Source: Acidobacteriaceae bacterium (GTDB lineage: Bacteria > Acidobacteriota > Terriglobia > Terriglobales > SbA1). Taken from it: a DNA stretch of 18,418 nucleotides. Position 1 is the first letter of the stretch, and each line of letters starts with the position of its first letter. Below the pieces are notes generated by a model. It was not told where the DNA came from, made no database searches, and saw only the letters and a program-made list of their open reading frames with translations. Position numbers and translations under genes: made by a program. Positions 10,272 through 17,761 of the stretch are shown in pieces. Location of the stretch: NCBI GenBank assembly GCA_003136335.1, contig PLEA01000602.1, forward strand, positions 1-18,418. The letters run 5' to 3'.

Positions 10272-13200
10272 TTAGGCCTTTTCGATCTTCACCAGAAATC
10301 CCTTGAACTCTGGGGTGAACGCATTCGGGTCGATCACCGTCGGGGTGAGCTGATTCGCCAGCGACCTCGCCGTCTTGCCTTCGTCTTCGGCAATCCCACG
10401 GAATCCCCAATGAATGGGGATGCCGATCTGAAACATCTCCTTGCCGTCGATTTTCATGGGGCGAATGCGGCGCGTGACCATGGCTTTGGCGATGTAGTGG
10501 CTGCGCGCGCTGGTGACTCGGACTTTTTCTCCGCCGGAAATGCCCATGCGATCCGCCAATTCCGCCGGCACCTCCACGAACGGCTCCGGCACCAGCTGCA
10601 CGTTCATGGGATTGTTCTTGGTCCAGTAGTGATAGTGCTCGGTTAAGCGGTAGGTCGTGCAAATCACGTTGAAACCCTGCTCCACAGTGCCGTACTTGTC
10701 CATATCGGTTTTGTACTTCTTCACCACCGGATTCGTGGATTGATTTGGATGCAGCGGATTCAAAATCGGGCTCTCGATCGGCTCGTAGAATTCGGGGAAT
10801 GGGCCGTCCGCCATGGCCCCCAGCGGTACGAACAGCCGGCCAATGCCCTCGGGATTCATGATGAACGGTCCCATGTGATCTTTTGGTGGGGAATCGGCCT
10901 TGAAGTCGGGGACGTCGACTCCGGCCCAGGATTGTTTCGACTCGTCCCACCAAACCTGACGGCGAGCCTGATCCCAAGGCTTGCCGTCGACATCGCACGA
11001 GGCGCGGTTGTACAGTACCCGCCGGTTCAACGGCCAGGACCACGCCCAGTTCGGATACACGCCCAGACCCGACGGATCCTCGGTGCCGCGACGCTGAGTC
11101 ATTGCGCCGGCTTCAGTCCAGGAGCCGCAGTACAGCCAGTTGCCGGAAAGAGTGGTGCCGTCATCTTTAAGCCAGGCGAAACTGGGCAGTTGCTGACCGG
11201 CTTTGATGGTTACATTCGTTTTGGGGTCGGTGATGTCGGCGGTCGCTTTTCCGTTGATCTCCTTTGCGACCTCCGACAGCGACGGGCTGTAGGGATTGGT
11301 GTAGGCAAACGATGCGTTCAGGATCGCGTCGGGGAATTTGCCGCCCTCCTTCTGATACAGTTCGCGAACTTTCAGAAATATCGTGGCCAAGATTTCCTGA
11401 TCCAACCTGGCTTGACCGGGCGGCGGCAGCGCGACATTTTTCCATTGCAGCCAGCGGGCGGAATTTACAAACGTTCCATCTTTCTCGGCGAAACCCGCGC
11501 CCGGCAGGCGATAGACAGTAGTGTTAATCTGCTTCATCTCGTCGGTCGAGATGCCGGGAGCGCGCCAGAATTCGCTGGTCTCATCGGGATAGATTTCGCA
11601 AACCACCAGCCAGTCGGCCTTCTTCAACGCGTTAATGTTTTTCTCCGAATCCGGCCCAATCATTACACCATTCATGCCGAAGGCGAAAATGCCCTTGACC
11701 TTGCCTTCGTACATATCGTTCCAGATGTTCACCCAGGAATAGTTGCGGTCGATCTTTGGCAGGTAGTGAAATGCGAAGTCGTTTTCCTTGGTCGCCGCCG
11801 GACCGTACAGCGCTTTGAGCAACGACACGGTGAACTTCGACGTGTTCGACCAGTAGTTATACGAATCCCACGGGTCGGGCTTGGACACCGTCGGGGTGAT
11901 TCGCTTCACGTACGTGGCGAGATCAACGTCGGCGGGGTTAGGCATTTTCAGATATCCCGGCAGAATGTCGAAGATGCCCGCCATATCGGTGGCGCCCTGA
12001 ATATTCGAGTGTCCACGCAGTGCGTTCACGCCCCCGCCTGCGCGCCCTATATTCCCCATCAGCAACTGCAGCATTGCCGCGGTGCGAATAATCTGGGTAC
12101 CGAAACTATGCTGGGTCCAGCCCACCGCATAGATGATGGTCGACACCTTTTTCATGTCTCCGTCTTTGCGAACCGAGGTGTAAAGATCGGTGGCTTTCAG
12201 GAACTGATCTTGCGGAATTCCGGTAATGCGCTCGACCATCTCCGGGGTGTAGCGCTCGTACTGCTTTTTGAGAAGTTGGAAGACGCAGCGCGGATGCTGC
12301 AGGGACAGATCAAACGCAATTTTCGGCGGCAACATCGGTCCGGGTGCGGCTCCGCCTTTCGCTCCGGCCGGACTCGCAGCTTGATGCCCCTGTCCTTGCT
12401 CTGTGTCGCTGCCCTGCGCATGCGGTGCGGGTGGCTCTTGTCCGGCCGGGGTTGGCATGACCGGCTTCCCGGTTAGGTCCCCGCCTTCTTCGTAGTTCCA
12501 GGTTGCCTTATCGTAAACCTGCTTCTCCGGATCGAATCCTGAGTACAGCCCGTCATCCGGAAGCTTGAATCCGTCTTTGATGATGAATGCGGCATTCGTG
12601 TAGTTGAGCAGGTAATCGTGGGCGATGCGGTTGTTCTGAATGGCGTAGTTGATCACCCCGCCGAGAAAGGCAATGTCGGAGCCCGCGCGAATCTGCACAT
12701 ACATATCCGCAGTCGCGGCGGTTCGCGTGAGGCGCGGATCGACCACGATCGTCTTCGCGTTGCGATGAATCTTGGCTTCAATCGCCCACTTGAAGCCGCA
12801 AGGATGGTTTTCGGCTGGATTCCCCCCCATGATCAACATCATGTCGGTGTTCTTGATGTCGATCCAGCCATTGGTCATCGCCCCGCGTCCGAATGTTGGC
12901 CCCAAACTGGAGACCGTAGGGCCATGTCAAACCCGAGCCTGGTTTTCCAGGTAGCAGACCCCCAGGCTGCGCATGCTTTTGACCACCAGATAATTAAATT
13001 CATTGGTGTCGGTGCAGCCCCCGGTGAAGGCAATGCCCTCGCAGCGGTTCACGGTGTGGCCATTCGCGTCTTTCTCCAGGAACGAGTCTTCACGCGTTTT
13101 CTTCACCCGCTGTGCGATTTCGCTGTAGGCCTGCTCCCAGGAAATGTCTTCCCAATCGGTGGCTCCCGGCCGCCGCACTTGCGGCTTGAGCAGCCGCCGG

Positions 13201-13508
13201 TCATTCATGATGTCCTGTTCGAGCGATGAACCTTTGGGGCAGAGAGTTCCGCGGTTGATGGGATGGTCGGGGTCGCCTTCGACGTGGACCACCTGCGGGA
13301 TCGCGTTCTTGGCCTTGTCGCCGAGCGTGTAAATAATGACGCCGCAGCTCACCGAACAATAAGGACACGTGCTGCGCGTTTCGCTGGCTCGGGAAATTTT
13401 CAGGTTCTGGGTCTGGGCGTAGACCGGAGTGAGATCGAATCCCAGTGCGGAGAGGCCTGCTCCGCCAAGGATGGAACCTTTAAGAAACGTTCTGCGGGAG
13501 AATTCCAT
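10272..13508 (-). CDS. fdnG: Formate dehydrogenase-N type alpha subunit, selenocysteine-containing (in-frame TGA at 12927-12929)
   Basis: Read as one 1078-residue selenoprotein. ATG 13508 has GGAGG five bases upstream and begins with a Tat signal (SRRTFLKGSILGGAG; processing near VYAQ, residue 32). Cysteines 48, 51, 55 and 90 bind one [4Fe-4S] cluster. The frame meets TGA as codon 194 in the context NQARV-U-HGPTV, the same context as the selenocysteine of E. coli FdnG (residue 196). Downstream are PTFGRGAMTN, MLIMGGNPAENHPCG, LQHPRCVFQLLKK and a molybdopterin-binding C-terminal domain (about 920-1078). A Pro/Ala/Gly/Gln-rich insert of about 45 residues (about 349-395) is absent from the E. 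coli enzyme and helps explain the extra length (1015 there). It oxidises formate to CO2 in the periplasm. Automatic callers would split this gene into a 193-residue and a roughly 877-residue piece. Confidence 0.95.
12898..12929 (-). promoter_or_regulatory. Selenocysteine codon and bacterial SECIS hairpin in fdnG
   Basis: The TGA codon is at 12927-12929. Eleven bases after it the mRNA can fold as GG, a bulged U, CUCC, loop AGUUU, GGGG, CC (12915 down to 12898): six pairs, a bulged U on the 5' side and a small apical loop holding GU. This has the same spacing and layout as E. coli fdhF (GG, bulged U, UGC, loop, GCA, CC), where SelB recognises the bulge and loop. The loop carries one G before U where E. 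coli has two. Confidence 0.85.
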
Positions 13509-13609
13509 TGAAACCTCCAGCAATCTAAAGCACGCGTTCAACCGTCGCGGACTACAGGGCAACTAGTGTGAGACGGAGATTGAAGTTTGCGGCCGCGGCG
13601 TTTTTACTC

Positions 13610-13729: not shown

Positions 13730-13759
13730 TTGCTCTCAATCTGCGACTGGGCTGATAAT
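13730..13759 (+). promoter_or_regulatory. Candidate promoter giving a leaderless fdhE mRNA
   Basis: GATAAT (13754-13759), preceded by TTGCTC (13730-13735) at 18 bp. Six bases separate the -10 from the ATG at 13766, which places the transcription start at or next to the start codon. There is no Shine-Dalgarno. The -35 is weak. Confidence 0.45.
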
Positions 13760-13765
13760 CTGCCG

Positions 13766-14566
13766 ATGACAGTCTCTCCCTGGCAGCGTCGGATTCATCG
13801 CGCGCAAGAACTTGGCAGCCAGCATCCATTTTCTGCGGAAATGCTCGGGTTCTACGTTCACGTCGCTCGCTTTCAGGAAGACTTGCATCAGCGGCTGAGC
13901 AAGGCTTTGCCTTGGGCATCGCAGTCTGCTTCCGTCCATACTGAGCTTAGTCGGGATGAGCTAGAAAATCTCAGTTCCAGGTTCGAGTCGTTTCTGTCCG
14001 TGGCCGAAGCGCACGGCCCCAAACCGTTGACCGAACTGAGCCGCGAATTGCGCACTCGCGGCAAAGACTTCTGGTCTGAGTTGCTGCGAGGCGCTTGGAC
14101 CGCGCTCTCCCCCTCCGACGCACAGGGCCTGCTAGCCTTTACGTTTCTTCAGCCCTACGCCGAACTGTTGCGCTCTCGTGCCTCGCTGCGCCCGGCTCCG
14201 ACTGCGCACGCGCTGTGTCCTTTCTGCAATCGCAAGCCCGGCTTGGGTGTGTTGCGCCAGATGGGCGATGGTGGCGCGCGATCCATGATCTGTGCTTTCT
14301 GCCTCGCCGAGTGGGAGTTTCGCAGGATCGTTTGCCCCGGATGCGGCGAAGAAAACGACCGCAAACTTCCGGTCTTTTCCGCCAGCGATTTCGATTACAT
14401 TCGCGTGGAGTGCTGCGACGCCTGCAAGACCTATATCAAGAGCGTGGACCTCACAAAAAATGGACGCGCCGAACCGCTGGTCGACGAACTCGCCTCCGCT
14501 CCACTCGATCTTTGGGCACGCGAACACGGCTACGCCAAACTGCAAAGCAACCTGCTGGGAATGTAG
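13766..14566 (+). CDS. fdhE: Formate dehydrogenase accessory protein FdhE
   Basis: A 266-residue cytoplasmic protein from ATG 13766. A TTG at 13730 would add 12 residues, but the GATAAT box just before the ATG favours the shorter form. The helical N-terminal half includes FSAEMLGFYVHVARFQEDLHQ. The C-terminal half is the rubredoxin-like FdhE metal region with four CxxC motifs: CPFC 151-154, CAFC 176-179 followed by LAEWEFRR, CPGC 190-193 and CDAC 217-220 followed by KTYIKSVDLTK. FdhE binds iron through these motifs and interacts with the catalytic subunits of Tat-exported respiratory formate dehydrogenases during assembly. The gene is divergent from fdnGHI over a 257-bp shared region, fully consistent with that role. 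FdhD, also needed for activation, is not in the window. Confidence 0.93.
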   Translation: MTVSPWQRRIHRAQELGSQHPFSAEMLGFYVHVARFQEDLHQRLSKALPWASQSASVHTELSRDELENLSSRFESFLSVAEAHGPKPLTELSRELRTRGKDFWSELLRGAWTALSPSDAQGLLAFTFLQPYAELLRSRASLRPAPTAHALCPFCNRKPGLGVLRQMGDGGARSMICAFCLAEWEFRRIVCPGCGEENDRKLPVFSASDFDYIRVECCDACKTYIKSVDLTKNGRAEPLVDELASAPLDLWAREHGYAKLQSNLLGM

Positions 14567-14636: not shown

Positions 14637-15566
14637 ATGAGTTCGACTTCGCCAGCGATTTCGGTGCAGGGCCTCAAGAAGTCCTACGGCGAGGTAGAAG
14701 CCGTGAAGGGAATCGACTTCGAAATCCAGCCGGGGGAAGTGTTCGGACTGCTCGGACCGAACGGCGCGGGCAAGACGACGACGGTGGAGATTCTCGAAGG
14801 ACTGCGTCCGCGCACGGGTGGTCAAGTCGCCGTTCTCGGTTTCGATCCCGACAAACAGCGCCAACGACTCAAAGACCGCATCGGCGTATGCCTGCAGGCG
14901 ACGAACTTGCCGGAGAAAATCCGCGTTCACGAAGCCATGGACGTGTTCGCATCCTTCTACAGCCGCAACGTGAATCTCGACCAACTACTGAAGCGTTTGC
15001 AGCTCGAAGAAAAGCGGAACGCCTTTTACGGCACGCTTTCGGGAGGTCAGAAGCAGCGGCTCGCTCTGGCCCTAGCCCTGGTAAACGATCCGCAGCTCAT
15101 CTTCCTCGACGAACCTACGACCGGGCTTGATCCGCAGGTCCGGGCGGAAATCCACACGTTGCTGGAGGAGTTGAAGCGCGAACGGCGCACGATTCTCCTG
15201 ACCACGCATTACATCGAAGAGGCCGAGCGGCTGTGCGACCGTGTCGCCATCGTCGACGAAGGCCGCATCATCGCGCTCGACACGCCGAGCCGCCTGCAAC
15301 AGCAGAGCCGCAACGCATCGAGCATAGTCGTGACTTGTGCCACACAGTTCCCGGATCCGCGTCCCGCATGGGCGGAAGCCACCGAGAGCATTCTTGATTC
15401 CAACGGCCACACCTTGACAGTCCGCTCGCGCCGTCCGGCGGCCACGCTCGTCGATCTGGTGAAGTGGATTGACCAGCAAGGGCTCGAACTGACCGATGTT
15501 CGCTTGAAGCAGCCGAGCCTCGAAGACGTGTTCATCGAGATGACCGGAAAGAGCCTTCGCCAATGA
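14637..15566 (+). CDS. ABC-2 type transporter ATP-binding protein
   Basis: A 309-residue cytoplasmic ATPase. Motifs are complete: Walker A GPNGAGKTT (40-48), Q-loop Q87, signature LSGGQ (134-138), Walker B LIFLDE (154-159), D-loop GLD and switch H191. About 90 further residues after the nucleotide-binding core (about 220-309), ending PSLEDVFIEMTGKSLR, are the C-terminal extension of the DrrA/CcmA-type exporters of drugs, polysaccharides and similar substrates. The stop overlaps the start of the next gene as ATGA, so the two are translationally coupled and probably form one transporter, each as a homodimer. The gene lacks a Shine-Dalgarno. The substrate cannot be told from this subunit. Confidence 0.93.
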   Translation: MSSTSPAISVQGLKKSYGEVEAVKGIDFEIQPGEVFGLLGPNGAGKTTTVEILEGLRPRTGGQVAVLGFDPDKQRQRLKDRIGVCLQATNLPEKIRVHEAMDVFASFYSRNVNLDQLLKRLQLEEKRNAFYGTLSGGQKQRLALALALVNDPQLIFLDEPTTGLDPQVRAEIHTLLEELKRERRTILLTTHYIEEAERLCDRVAIVDEGRIIALDTPSRLQQQSRNASSIVVTCATQFPDPRPAWAEATESILDSNGHTLTVRSRRPAATLVDLVKWIDQQGLELTDVRLKQPSLEDVFIEMTGKSLRQ

Positions 15567-17761
15567 AAAGCTACAAGGCTTTGATTGCAATCGATCTGAA
15601 GCTGGCTCTGCGCAACCGGTCTGTCATTTTTTTCAACTATCTTTTCCCGCTCATTTTCTTTTTTATCTTCGGACAGGCAATGCACGCCGAGCGCGGCGCA
15701 GCCATCACGATGGTTATCGCCATGGTCCTCATCATCGGTATCCTCGGCAATGGACTAATGGGCGCCGGCATACGAGCGGTACACGAACGCGAAGCCAACA
15801 TTCTGCGCCGCTACAAGGTTACGCCCATCACGCCCGCTCCCTTGCTCGTTGCTTCCGTGGTGACCGGCTGGATTCTGTATATGCCGAACGTGATTCTTAT
15901 TCTCGCGCTGGCACACTTCCTATACGGAATGCCGTGGCCCCAATCGATGGGCTCGATCCTCGTTTTCATTTCTGTGGCCATCGCCGGCTTTCGCGCCATC
16001 GGACTGATCCTCGCTTCGGTTGTGAACTCGATGCAGGAAAGTCAGCTGATCGTGCAGTTGATCTATCTTCCCATGCTGTTCCTGAGTGGCGCGACATTTC
16101 CTCTCTCCATGTTTCCGCCCTGGCTGTTGTTGATAACGCAGTTCGTCCCTGCGAGCTACATGGTGACGGGCATTCAAGGAATGCTTCTGCGGCAGGAAGG
16201 CATCGGGGCGAACCTTGAGCCCATGTTGGCGCTGGTGCTCACCACGTTCGTCGGCCTTTTCATCGCTTACAAATTATTTCGCTGGGAAAAAGAAGAGAAG
16301 ATTCGCGCCTCCGCGAAGCTCTGGCTGCTGGCTGTGCTGGCTCCATTCCTGTTGCTGGGCGCATGGCAGATGCATACCCGCAGCGGCATCGCCAAGACCA
16401 AGGTTCTGAACCGGCAACTCGCCCGCGGCGATACCTATCTGATTCGCGGAGCCCGCATCTTCGTCGGCAACGGCACCGTCATTGAAAATGGAACCGTGCT
16501 GGTGCGGGGCGGAAAAATTGCCGAAGTCTACGAGGGGGCCGGTCCCGATCCCAAGTCGGTAAAGGCGGAGGTCGTCGAGGCGGAGGGTAAAACAATTCTT
16601 CCCGGGCTGATTGACGTTCACGTTCATCTCGGGGCGCCCGGCGGCTTCTATCCCGACATGAGCAAGTACGATCCTGAGAAAAGCATGCTGCGCGAACTGG
16701 CTGCCTATTTGTACAGCGGCGTGACCACCGTCCGAAGCGTGGGCGACGGCTTGGACAGCGTGCTCAAGGTGCGCTCTACGGTCAATGGCGGTGAGGTCCT
16801 GGGCGCGGAATTATTCACGTGCGGGCCGCTGTTCACGGCACCCGGAGGACACGGCACCGAATATTTCACAGACCTTCCGGCCAACATTCGAGCGAATGTT
16901 GAAAAACAATTCACGCGTCTTCCGGCTTCCGCCGAACGAGCCAGGCAGCAAGTGGATGAATTGAAGAAGCAAGGAGTCGACTGTATTAAAGCGATTCTCG
17001 AGGCTGGCGCGGGCGGGCGGGTCTTCAACCGTCTTGATACTGGATTGTTTAATGCCGTTGCTCAAGCGGCGCACGCGGATGATCTGCCGCTGGCGGTTCA
17101 CACGGGAGATGCTCGCGATGTCGCGGACGCGGTGCAAGCCCAGGCCAACTCCATTGAACACGGTTCTTTTCGCGAAGCGATTCCAGCCGCGGTGTTTGAT
17201 CAGATGGCCAAGCAGGGAACGTTTTACGATCCGACCTTGAGCGTAGGCGAGGCGTTCAAAGATTTCGCAGCCGGCAAGACCGGCCTGCTGAAGCGTTCTC
17301 TCGTGCAGCAAGTGGGACCGCCGGAACTGCTGCAGGGAACGGAAGACGCTCTCGCCTCGAAGGACACCGAGTCGATGCGCGCGGCGCTGAGCCGCTACCC
17401 CATCGATATGCGGGTTGCCGTCGATAACCTGAAGCGCGCTCACCAGCACGGAGTCTCACTTGTCACAGGCAGTGACGCGGGAAACTTTCTCGTAATTCAC
17501 GGGCCCACCGTGCAACATGAACTTCAACTCTGGGTGCAAGCCGGAATTCCGGCGGCCGTGGCATTGCAGGCCGCCACTTTTAACGCCGCTCGGCTGTTGC
17601 GAGCCGAGAAGCGAATTGGTTCCATCCAACCCGGCAATGACGCCGATTTGCTCGTGGTCGACGGAAATCCTCTTGACGATATCACCGCTACCGAACGCAT
17701 CTCCCTGGTCGTTTTCAAGGGCGAGCGCGTCGACCGCACTGCACTGTTCGATCAGCACTGA
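15563..17761 (+). CDS. ABC-2 permease fused to an imidazolonepropionase-like amidohydrolase
   Basis: A single 732-residue open frame. Residues 1-240 are an ABC-2 permease: helices near 21-38, 47-70, 94-120, 130-154, 162-180 and 219-238, with cytoplasmic HEREANILRRYKVTPI (74-89) and the family-typical PASYMVTGIQGML (196-208). A charged linker (WEKEEKIRASAK, 241-252) leads to a seventh helix (253-270). Residues 290-732 are a complete amidohydrolase: H353 and H355 (DVHVH), K476 in CIKAI as the likely carboxylated lysine, H513 (LAVHTGD), H533 (SIEHGS) and D638 (TGSDAG), closing with GNDADLLVVDGNP. If the permease has both ends inside, helix 7 places the enzyme outside the cytoplasmic membrane. 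No internal ATG, GTG or TTG lies in the linker before helix 7. The substrate is unknown; related secreted enzymes act on cyclic amides or Xaa-Pro dipeptides. Confidence 0.9.
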   Translation: MKSYKALIAIDLKLALRNRSVIFFNYLFPLIFFFIFGQAMHAERGAAITMVIAMVLIIGILGNGLMGAGIRAVHEREANILRRYKVTPITPAPLLVASVVTGWILYMPNVILILALAHFLYGMPWPQSMGSILVFISVAIAGFRAIGLILASVVNSMQESQLIVQLIYLPMLFLSGATFPLSMFPPWLLLITQFVPASYMVTGIQGMLLRQEGIGANLEPMLALVLTTFVGLFIAYKLFRWEKEEKIRASAKLWLLAVLAPFLLLGAWQMHTRSGIAKTKVLNRQLARGDTYLIRGARIFVGNGTVIENGTVLVRGGKIAEVYEGAGPDPKSVKAEVVEAEGKTILPGLIDVHVHLGAPGGFYPDMSKYDPEKSMLRELAAYLYSGVTTVRSVGDGLDSVLKVRSTVNGGEVLGAELFTCGPLFTAPGGHGTEYFTDLPANIRANVEKQFTRLPASAERARQQVDELKKQGVDCIKAILEAGAGGRVFNRLDTGLFNAVAQAAHADDLPLAVHTGDARDVADAVQAQANSIEHGSFREAIPAAVFDQMAKQGTFYDPTLSVGEAFKDFAAGKTGLLKRSLVQQVGPPELLQGTEDALASKDTESMRAALSRYPIDMRVAVDNLKRAHQHGVSLVTGSDAGNFLVIHGPTVQHELQLWVQAGIPAAVALQAATFNAARLLRAEKRIGSIQPGNDADLLVVDGNPLDDITATERISLVVFKGERVDRTALFDQH

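What the first reader, a model, noticed from the sequence alone, without database searches (positions are those of the whole stretch)
15563..17761. ABC-2 permease and metal-dependent amidohydrolase in one polypeptide
One uninterrupted frame joins a six-helix ABC-2 permease to a full amidohydrolase with all expected metal ligands (H353, H355, K476, H513, H533, D638). The joint is a charged linker plus a seventh hydrophobic helix that looks like a captured signal peptide, suggesting the fusion arose when a permease gene read through into a neighbouring secreted-amidohydrolase gene. The expected topology puts the enzyme outside the membrane, tethered to an ATP-driven transporter. Two models follow: the hydrolase trims or detoxifies what the transporter exports, or the enzyme merely gains a membrane anchor. 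I know of no characterised protein with this architecture, though that is from memory.
Basis: partly seen in the sequence, partly recalled or inferred. Interest (0 to 1): 0.85.

Follow-up and report, generated by a model that had tools for sequence, protein, structure and literature searches.

The report
ABC exporter carrying a dispensable hydrolase
A soil bacterium makes one long protein that is half membrane export pump and half metal-dependent hydrolase; the pairing is old and widespread, and relatives have repeatedly lost the enzyme's active site, or even its core, while keeping the rest attached to the pump.

Summary
The fusion is real. ORF 15563-17761 (732 aa) joins an ABC-2 (DrrB-like) permease, a seventh hydrophobic helix and an Amidohydro_1 enzyme with all six metal ligands; a DrrA-like ATPase gene overlaps it by 4 bp. 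The same architecture recurs in Acidobacteriota and Verrucomicrobiota MAGs, down to 23-26% identity, and the ATPase lies beside it in 70 of 71 loci. Fused enzymes plus a small stand-alone group form one clade, which fits one old fusion followed by losses. The 'captured signal peptide' idea is not supported: permeases without hydrolase end soon after the same helix.

Catalysis is expendable. Of 66 genomes of the class that carry the gene, 37 keep all ligands; 7 keep the domain with ligands changed; 17 lost part or most of the barrel core but keep both ends; 4 keep only the permease; 1 is frame-split. Well-supported branches force at least 13 changes. In the closest hollowed pairs the remnants are under purifying selection, and in an 11-species clade many scaffold residues are kept 11 of 11. 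I read this as an exporter whose outer domain began as a hydrolase and also serves the pump structurally. Substrate, topology and that structural job are untested.

The parts
14637..15566 (+). DrrA-like ABC ATPase, partner subunit; its stop overlaps the fusion's start by 4 bp
   Evidence: ABC_tran E 8.4e-32; TIGR01188 drrA 263.7 bits, below its 312.45 cut-off; present beside the gene in 70 of 71 loci, the exception (L139) lying at a contig end
15563..17761 (+). fused permease-amidohydrolase gene, 732 aa
15563..16297 (+). ABC-2 permease, residues 1-245 (six membrane helices)
   Evidence: AlphaFold2 helices
16307..16378 (+). seventh hydrophobic helix, residues 249-272; also present in permeases without hydrolase
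16382..16426 (+). linker helix, residues 274-288
16427..17758 (+). amidohydrolase domain, residues 289-732
   Evidence: Pfam; Foldseek best 2qs8, E 5.5e-26, TM-score 0.86 by target length
16619..16627 (+). metal ligands H353 and H355 (HxH)
16988..16990 (+). K476, expected carboxylated lysine bridging the metals
   Evidence: role from family knowledge
17099..17101 (+). metal ligand H513
17159..17161 (+). metal ligand H533
17474..17476 (+). active-site aspartate D638
16829..17233 (+). stretch (about residues 423-557) that is absent in the 11-species hollowed clade of relatives; intact here
17483..17758 (+). C-terminal part (residues 641-732), kept in the hollowed relatives

Best explanation
This is a two-gene ABC exporter (DrrAB-like ATPase plus ABC-2 permease) whose permease carries, behind an extra seventh helix, an extracytoplasmic domain derived from a binuclear-metal amidohydrolase of the Xaa-Pro dipeptidase / N-acyl-amino-acid hydrolase group. 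In the window the enzyme looks catalytically competent and would cleave an amide or peptide bond in the exported molecule, or in a toxic amide met at the exit. The domain also has a second, non-catalytic job for the transporter (stabilising, capping or gating the permease, or binding a partner), which explains why lineages that lost the metal site, or most of the barrel, still keep the rest. Shown: fusion, conservation, ATPase partnership, recurrent loss of the catalytic residues, low dN/dS on the closest remnants. Inferred: outside location, export direction, substrate class, the structural job.
For: Architecture and ligands. ATPase beside the gene in 70 of 71 loci, while the window's other genes recur only in the nearest relative L001 of the loci compared and other neighbours are shared by at most three loci. 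All 51 fused hydrolases in the tree plus 12 stand-alone ones of the CIA30 clade form one group (99/88) against 33 other stand-alone amidohydrolases, 9 further near-duplicate stand-alone rows having been dropped beforehand. Class sample: 66 of 349 genomes; 37 intact, 7 full or near full length with changed ligands, 17 hollowed, 1 frame-split, 4 permease-only. Permease tree: the label 'active' needs 17 changes, at least 13 forced by starred branches (complete losses of the domain included); hollowed 6, at least 5; one hollowed clade of 11 species at 100/99. dN/dS of the remnants is 0.16-0.23 in the three closest hollowed pairs (permease 0.08-0.12), and 0.07-0.14 over the whole domain in the ligand-less pair L197/L198. 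In the 11-species clade H353, H355, D638 and N641 are kept 0 of 11 and K476, H513, H533 and the GGH motif 428-430 are gone, but R284, R298, G302, G304, I319, D351, G386, L580, Q583, G647, L656, G661, T672, G686, G691, A694, G701, P703, G720 and R725 are kept 11 of 11. Three of these genes lie on contigs of 3.5, 4.4 and 4.9 Mb, which argues against assembly error. 54 of 54 stand-alone relatives read HHKHHD.
Against: No experiment. Low dN/dS on remnants can also mean only that a misfolded tail would harm the permease. Several lineages lost the whole domain, so the structural job is not needed everywhere. Constraint is looser elsewhere: C-terminal remnant 0.50 in L172-L174, middle stretch 0.67 in L169-L170, hydrolase 0.39-0.66 in L199-L159 and 0.25-0.46 in L161-L142. 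Two of the seven ligand-changed genes (L159, L162) have only one or two substitutions and may be active; L188 and L185 are frame-broken. The stand-alone control is biased, since those rows were found by similarity to an intact domain. Residues after TM7 carry a higher mean net charge than the TM6-TM7 loop, so the positive-inside rule does not support an outside C-terminus. No structure of a hollowed remnant was made.
Confidence: 0.5

Rival explanations
1. Export-coupled processing only: the enzyme exists to trim, activate or detoxify the exported molecule, as in prodrug-activating peptidases fused to an ABC half-transporter (ZmaM). Ligand-less and hollowed relatives are simply decaying after the substrate pathway was lost.
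For: 37 of 66 class members keep every ligand. ZmaM, EdeA and PamJ precedent seen in passages of PMC9889268. Complete loss of the domain occurs in several lineages, and constraint on some ligand-less domains is loose (L199-L159, L161-L142).
Against: Remnants persist in an 11-species clade with many scaffold columns kept 11 of 11 and dN/dS well below 1 in its closest pairs; one ligand-less full-length pair (L197/L198) is as constrained as most active pairs.
Confidence: 0.3
2. Topology is inverted: helix 249-272 does not place the C-terminus outside and the hydrolase works in the cytoplasm, for example on the substrate before export.
For: Mean net charge is +2.6 over the 20 columns after the helix and +0.7 over the 13 columns before it, although K/R per column is about equal (4.7 of 20 against 3.2 of 13; 46 fusions). 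Relatives of the enzyme half include cytoplasmic enzymes (recalled).
Against: Canonical ABC-2 permeases have both ends inside (recalled), so a seventh helix puts the C-terminus outside. 9 of 11 stand-alone proteins of the same hydrolase clade begin with a hydrophobic signal- or anchor-like stretch, judged by eye (one of the other two is a fragment).
Confidence: 0.1
3. Membrane anchor only: the enzyme borrows the permease as a tether and transport is irrelevant.
For: Relatives exist with a signal- or anchor-like N-terminus instead of the permease (L046, P0211).
Against: ATPase kept in 70 of 71 loci; permease more constrained than the enzyme in most pairs; in the class sample the enzyme, not the permease, is what decays.
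Confidence: 0.05
4. Sequencing or assembly artefact that joined two genes.
For: None found.
Against: Same junction in the 120 listed homologues and in 15 of 15 loci of named genomes.
Confidence: 0.01

Closest known systems
DrrAB / NodIJ-type ABC-2 exporters
   Same: the ATPase scores best against DrrA and NodI models and the permease part best against DrrB; two-gene arrangement
   Different: below the DrrB (60 of 223 bits) and DrrA (263.7 of 312 bits) cut-offs; extra seventh helix and a hydrolase domain
Xaa-Pro dipeptidase / Cc2672 Arg-Lys carboxypeptidase / ochratoxin hydrolase ADH3 group of the amidohydrolase superfamily
   Same: fold and all metal ligands; 2qs8 best by sequence (E 1e-37) and by fold (E 5.5e-26)
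   Different: about 26% identical; NCBIfam Xaa-Pro model 183.5 of 500 bits; fused to a transporter; substrate unknown
ZmaM-type prodrug-activating peptidases fused to an ABC half-transporter (PMC9889268, passages)
   Same: hydrolase and ABC transporter part in one polypeptide, enzyme meant to act at the exit side
   Different: beta-lactamase-family (PF00144) peptidase, ABC part C-terminal to the enzyme, found in biosynthetic clusters; no shared Pfam family here

Membership tests
ABC-2 (DrrB-like) export permease | ABC2_membrane domain over the full profile | tested here: met
   PF01061 3-209 of 211, 75.8 bits, cut-off 26.9
ABC-2 (DrrB-like) export permease | cognate ATPase with Walker A, signature and Walker B | tested here: met
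   ATPase beside the gene in 70 of 71 loci; all three motifs in the 58 of 71 loci where a narrower motif scan found an ATPase frame
DrrB subfamily proper (TIGR01247) | score above curated cut-off | tested here: not met
   60 bits against 223
ABC-2 (DrrB-like) export permease | ATP-driven export | not testable with these tools
   needs reconstitution or knock-out
Amidohydrolase superfamily, binuclear-metal subtype | HxH, lysine, H, H, D | tested here: met
   all six in the window
Xaa-Pro dipeptidase (NF051886) | score above curated cut-off | tested here: not met
   183.5 bits against 500
Xaa-Pro dipeptidase | cleaves Xaa-Pro dipeptides | not testable with these tools
   needs assay
ZmaM/ClbP prodrug peptidases | beta-lactamase-family (PF00144) peptidase domain | tested here: not met
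   no PF00144 among the Pfam matches
ZmaM/ClbP prodrug peptidases | lies in an NRPS/PKS cluster | tested here: inconclusive
   neighbours named in the window are FdhE-like, a CxxCxxCC protein and a SECIS-bearing formate dehydrogenase; no search for NRPS/PKS genes was run and the window ends 0.7 kb downstream

The most novel reading that the evidence does not exclude
A metallohydrolase was captured by an ABC exporter long ago and became a structural part of the pump; since then its active site, and in one 11-species clade most of its barrel, has been discarded repeatedly while the shell that serves the transporter is kept: a new kind of extracytoplasmic accessory domain for ABC-2 exporters, born as an enzyme and convertible into a pseudo-enzyme.
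Probability: 0.4. Interest if true: 0.75.

Novelty: new variant of a known kind. Interest (0 to 1): 0.6.

Why it matters
It gives a natural series, from active enzyme through ligand-less and hollowed domains to a bare seven-helix permease, in which the catalytic and structural contributions of an enzyme fused to an ABC exporter can be separated. It also bears on automatic annotation: one source already names both halves of these proteins, and some fused 'amidohydrolases' cannot be active.

Tried and rejected
Captured signal peptide: rejected as the simplest reading because TM7 occurs in permeases with no hydrolase. Repeated independent fusions: less likely, since the fused hydrolases plus the CIA30-clade ones form one group, and the clades around P0141/P0182 and P0236-P0241 are sisters in both the permease tree (90/88) and the hydrolase tree (95/87).

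Fission as origin of the seven permease-only genes of the window's family: favoured, not proved. In the larger permease tree they nest among fusions and 0 of 200 bootstrap trees keep the 34 fused rows together, but the AU test gives p 0.055, and an ATPase+permease tree of 28 loci puts them as sister to 14 fusions (87/80). Their genomes hold no close stand-alone hydrolase (best E 1e-26, 34%).

Functional hints from neighbours: prolyl oligopeptidase (shared by L009, L012), D-aminopeptidase (L013-L015), M13 peptidase (L008, L057), one member of each checked with Pfam; near unfused loci an M24 peptidase (L091) and DUF1287 (L047, L050). No background was measured, so I give this no weight. An Amidohydro_2 gene near permease-only locus L049 belongs to another family.

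Literature: searches found no paper that by title or abstract describes this fusion; one search listed one paper and five, none opened; only open-licence full texts are held. PMC9889268 was read in passages only. Papers were seen as search listings only.

Limits: the phylum searches scored few candidates per genome, so low rates there (3 fused of 396) are lower bounds. Protein search lists are capped at 120. dN/dS was by Nei-Gojobori with Jukes-Cantor on 22 chosen pairs; dS is near or above 1 in many of them. Dropped before trees: 9 near-duplicate stand-alone rows and L144 and L163.
Full report
OBSERVATION. The frame 15563-17761 is open over 732 codons and encodes an ABC-2 permease followed by a complete amidohydrolase. 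An ABC ATPase gene (14637-15566) overlaps it by four bases. The AlphaFold2 model (56-sequence alignment) is confident (mean pLDDT 91.4, pTM 0.88, no residue under 50), with helix 249-272 and a second helix 274-288 between permease and hydrolase. By sequence and by fold the enzyme half is nearest to 2qs8, a Xaa-Pro dipeptidase; ochratoxin-degrading ADH3-like hydrolases and Cc2672 are also near, at 23-27% identity. That is too far to name a substrate.

DISTRIBUTION. A protein search gave 3619 relatives; the 120 listed are full-length fusions with the same four Pfam domains. Searches from two distant members (120 of 1107 and 120 of 389 listed) show fusions named Terriglobales, Bryobacteraceae, Thermoanaerobaculia, Chthoniobacterales and Verrucomicrobiota, and a clade including 'bacterium HR10' at 23-26% identity to the window. 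Fifteen of 15 loci from named genomes are Acidobacteriota by title. In the family-level sample 22 of 200 genomes matched: 6 with a full fusion, 3 with fragments, 7 permease-only and 6 with stand-alone hydrolases at 31-33%. In the class-level sample 66 of 349 matched (class of G001, the genome of the 90% identical locus L001). The ATPase is beside the gene in 70 of 71 loci checked; the exception starts at a contig end. Of the window's other genes only those in L001, the nearest relative, recur among the 24 loci compared, and other neighbours are shared by two or three loci at most (17 loci), so this looks like a self-contained two-gene unit.

ORIGIN. In a tree of 96 hydrolase domains (9 near-duplicate stand-alone rows left out) the 51 fused ones and 12 stand-alone ones of the CIA30 clade form one group (99/88) that excludes 33 other stand-alone hydrolases. 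Nine of the 12 sit with the fused P0121 and P0122 (100/100), so they too may be former fusions. In the permease tree fused and unfused genes are interleaved. Unfused permeases end at or after TM7, a separate set (L062, L068, L072) carries a Pro-rich linker and another C-terminal stretch there, and five lack TM7. TM7 is therefore shared by this permease subfamily and acts as an attachment point; it is not a signal peptide peculiar to the hydrolase. Whether it predates the fusion is not settled. That the seven permease-only genes of the window's family are fission products is favoured by one tree and not by another (see Tried and rejected).

LOSS OF CATALYSIS. The 66 class-level genes were aligned and read at the six ligand positions. 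Thirty-seven are intact. Seven are full or near full length with ligands changed: L159 HHRQHD, L161 DRARRG, L162 HHKHYD, L197 and L198 QFKMSG, L199 RQ-A-G, L200 RDRYNG; L159 and L162 are mild cases that could retain activity. Seventeen are hollowed (L169-L184, L188): in L171-L184 the stretch from about residue 423 to 557, with three of the ligands, is missing, and the remaining ligands are mostly substituted (L176 still has H355 and D638). L169 and L170 lose a smaller part, and L188 lacks the middle but is also frame-broken. One gene is split by a frame break (L185) and four are permease-only. L029 (DHAHRG) and P0134 (GRSHHG), outside this sample of 66, are further full-length cases. On a permease tree of 81 rows the label 'active' changes 17 times, at least 13 forced by starred branches (complete losses of the domain included), and hollowing 6 times, at least 5; 11 hollowed species form one clade at 100/99. 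Three of these lie on contigs of 3.5, 4.4 and 4.9 Mb.

SELECTION. For the closest hollowed pairs dN/dS is, permease / N-terminal remnant / C-terminal remnant: L181-L184 0.08/0.16/0.19, L177-L180 0.09/0.21/0.17, L179-L182 0.12/0.23/0.20. More distant hollowed pairs are looser, up to 0.50 in the C-terminal remnant (L172-L174) and 0.67 in the middle of L169-L170. The ligand-less full-length pair L197-L198 gives 0.07-0.14 throughout; of eight active pairs seven give 0.03-0.18 where a value could be computed, and L140-L142 reaches 0.37. Other ligand-less comparisons are looser: L199-L159 0.39-0.66 outside the permease, L161 against active L142 0.25-0.46 in the hydrolase. In the 11-species clade, among columns at least 95% constant in 42 active genes, those inside the deleted stretch are gone by definition; outside it H353, H355, D638 and N641 are kept 0 of 11, about 25 beta-sandwich and C-terminal columns 11 of 11, and some are intermediate (G348 4, T388 5, G640 6, E653 8). 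This is what selection for a folded remainder would give; a slowly eroding tail remains possible.

MECHANISM. My reading is an exporter whose extracytoplasmic domain hydrolyses an amide in the cargo or at the exit (active members) and also supports the transporter. The nearest precedent is ZmaM, a prodrug-activating peptidase fused to an ABC half-transporter (passages of PMC9889268), which is analogous, not homologous. For an outside location stand the helix count and the signal- or anchor-like N-termini of 9 of 11 stand-alone relatives, judged by eye. Against it, mean net charge after TM7 (+2.6 over 20 columns) exceeds that before it (+0.7 over 13 columns), with K/R per column about equal.

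VERDICT. The architecture is a new variant of a known kind (transporter-hydrolase fusion). The recurrent conversion into a retained pseudo-enzyme is the surprising part. Six literature searches found no description of it (listings only).

Noticed in passing
window 10272-13562, - strand: Formate dehydrogenase catalytic subunit with an in-frame TGA that fits selenocysteine (residue 212 of the read-through) and a SECIS_3 element at 12874-12932 (66.6 bits); an FdhE-like gene lies at 13730-14566.
   Followed up: partly
L062, L068, L072: Relatives of the permease with TM7, a Pro/Ala-rich linker and a different C-terminal stretch that matched nothing in Pfam in the one tested (G178, as L086).
   Followed up: partly
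L054 4274-6700 and L082 5582-8122: Histidine kinase gene (PF06580) directly downstream of the permease gene in one fused (G380) and one unfused (G066) genome.
   Followed up: no
L046 4740-8715: Stand-alone amidohydrolase-CIA30 gene with an anchor-like N-terminus, directly followed by an ABC ATPase and a different ABC-2 permease: the enzyme is ABC-linked here even when unfused.
   Followed up: partly
L054 6749-9466 (same gene as L019): Three-part fusion: permease, amidohydrolase and a C-terminal CIA30 domain, 905 aa.
   Followed up: no
L029 (G431) and P0134: Full-length fusions outside the class sample in which several metal ligands are substituted.
   Followed up: partly
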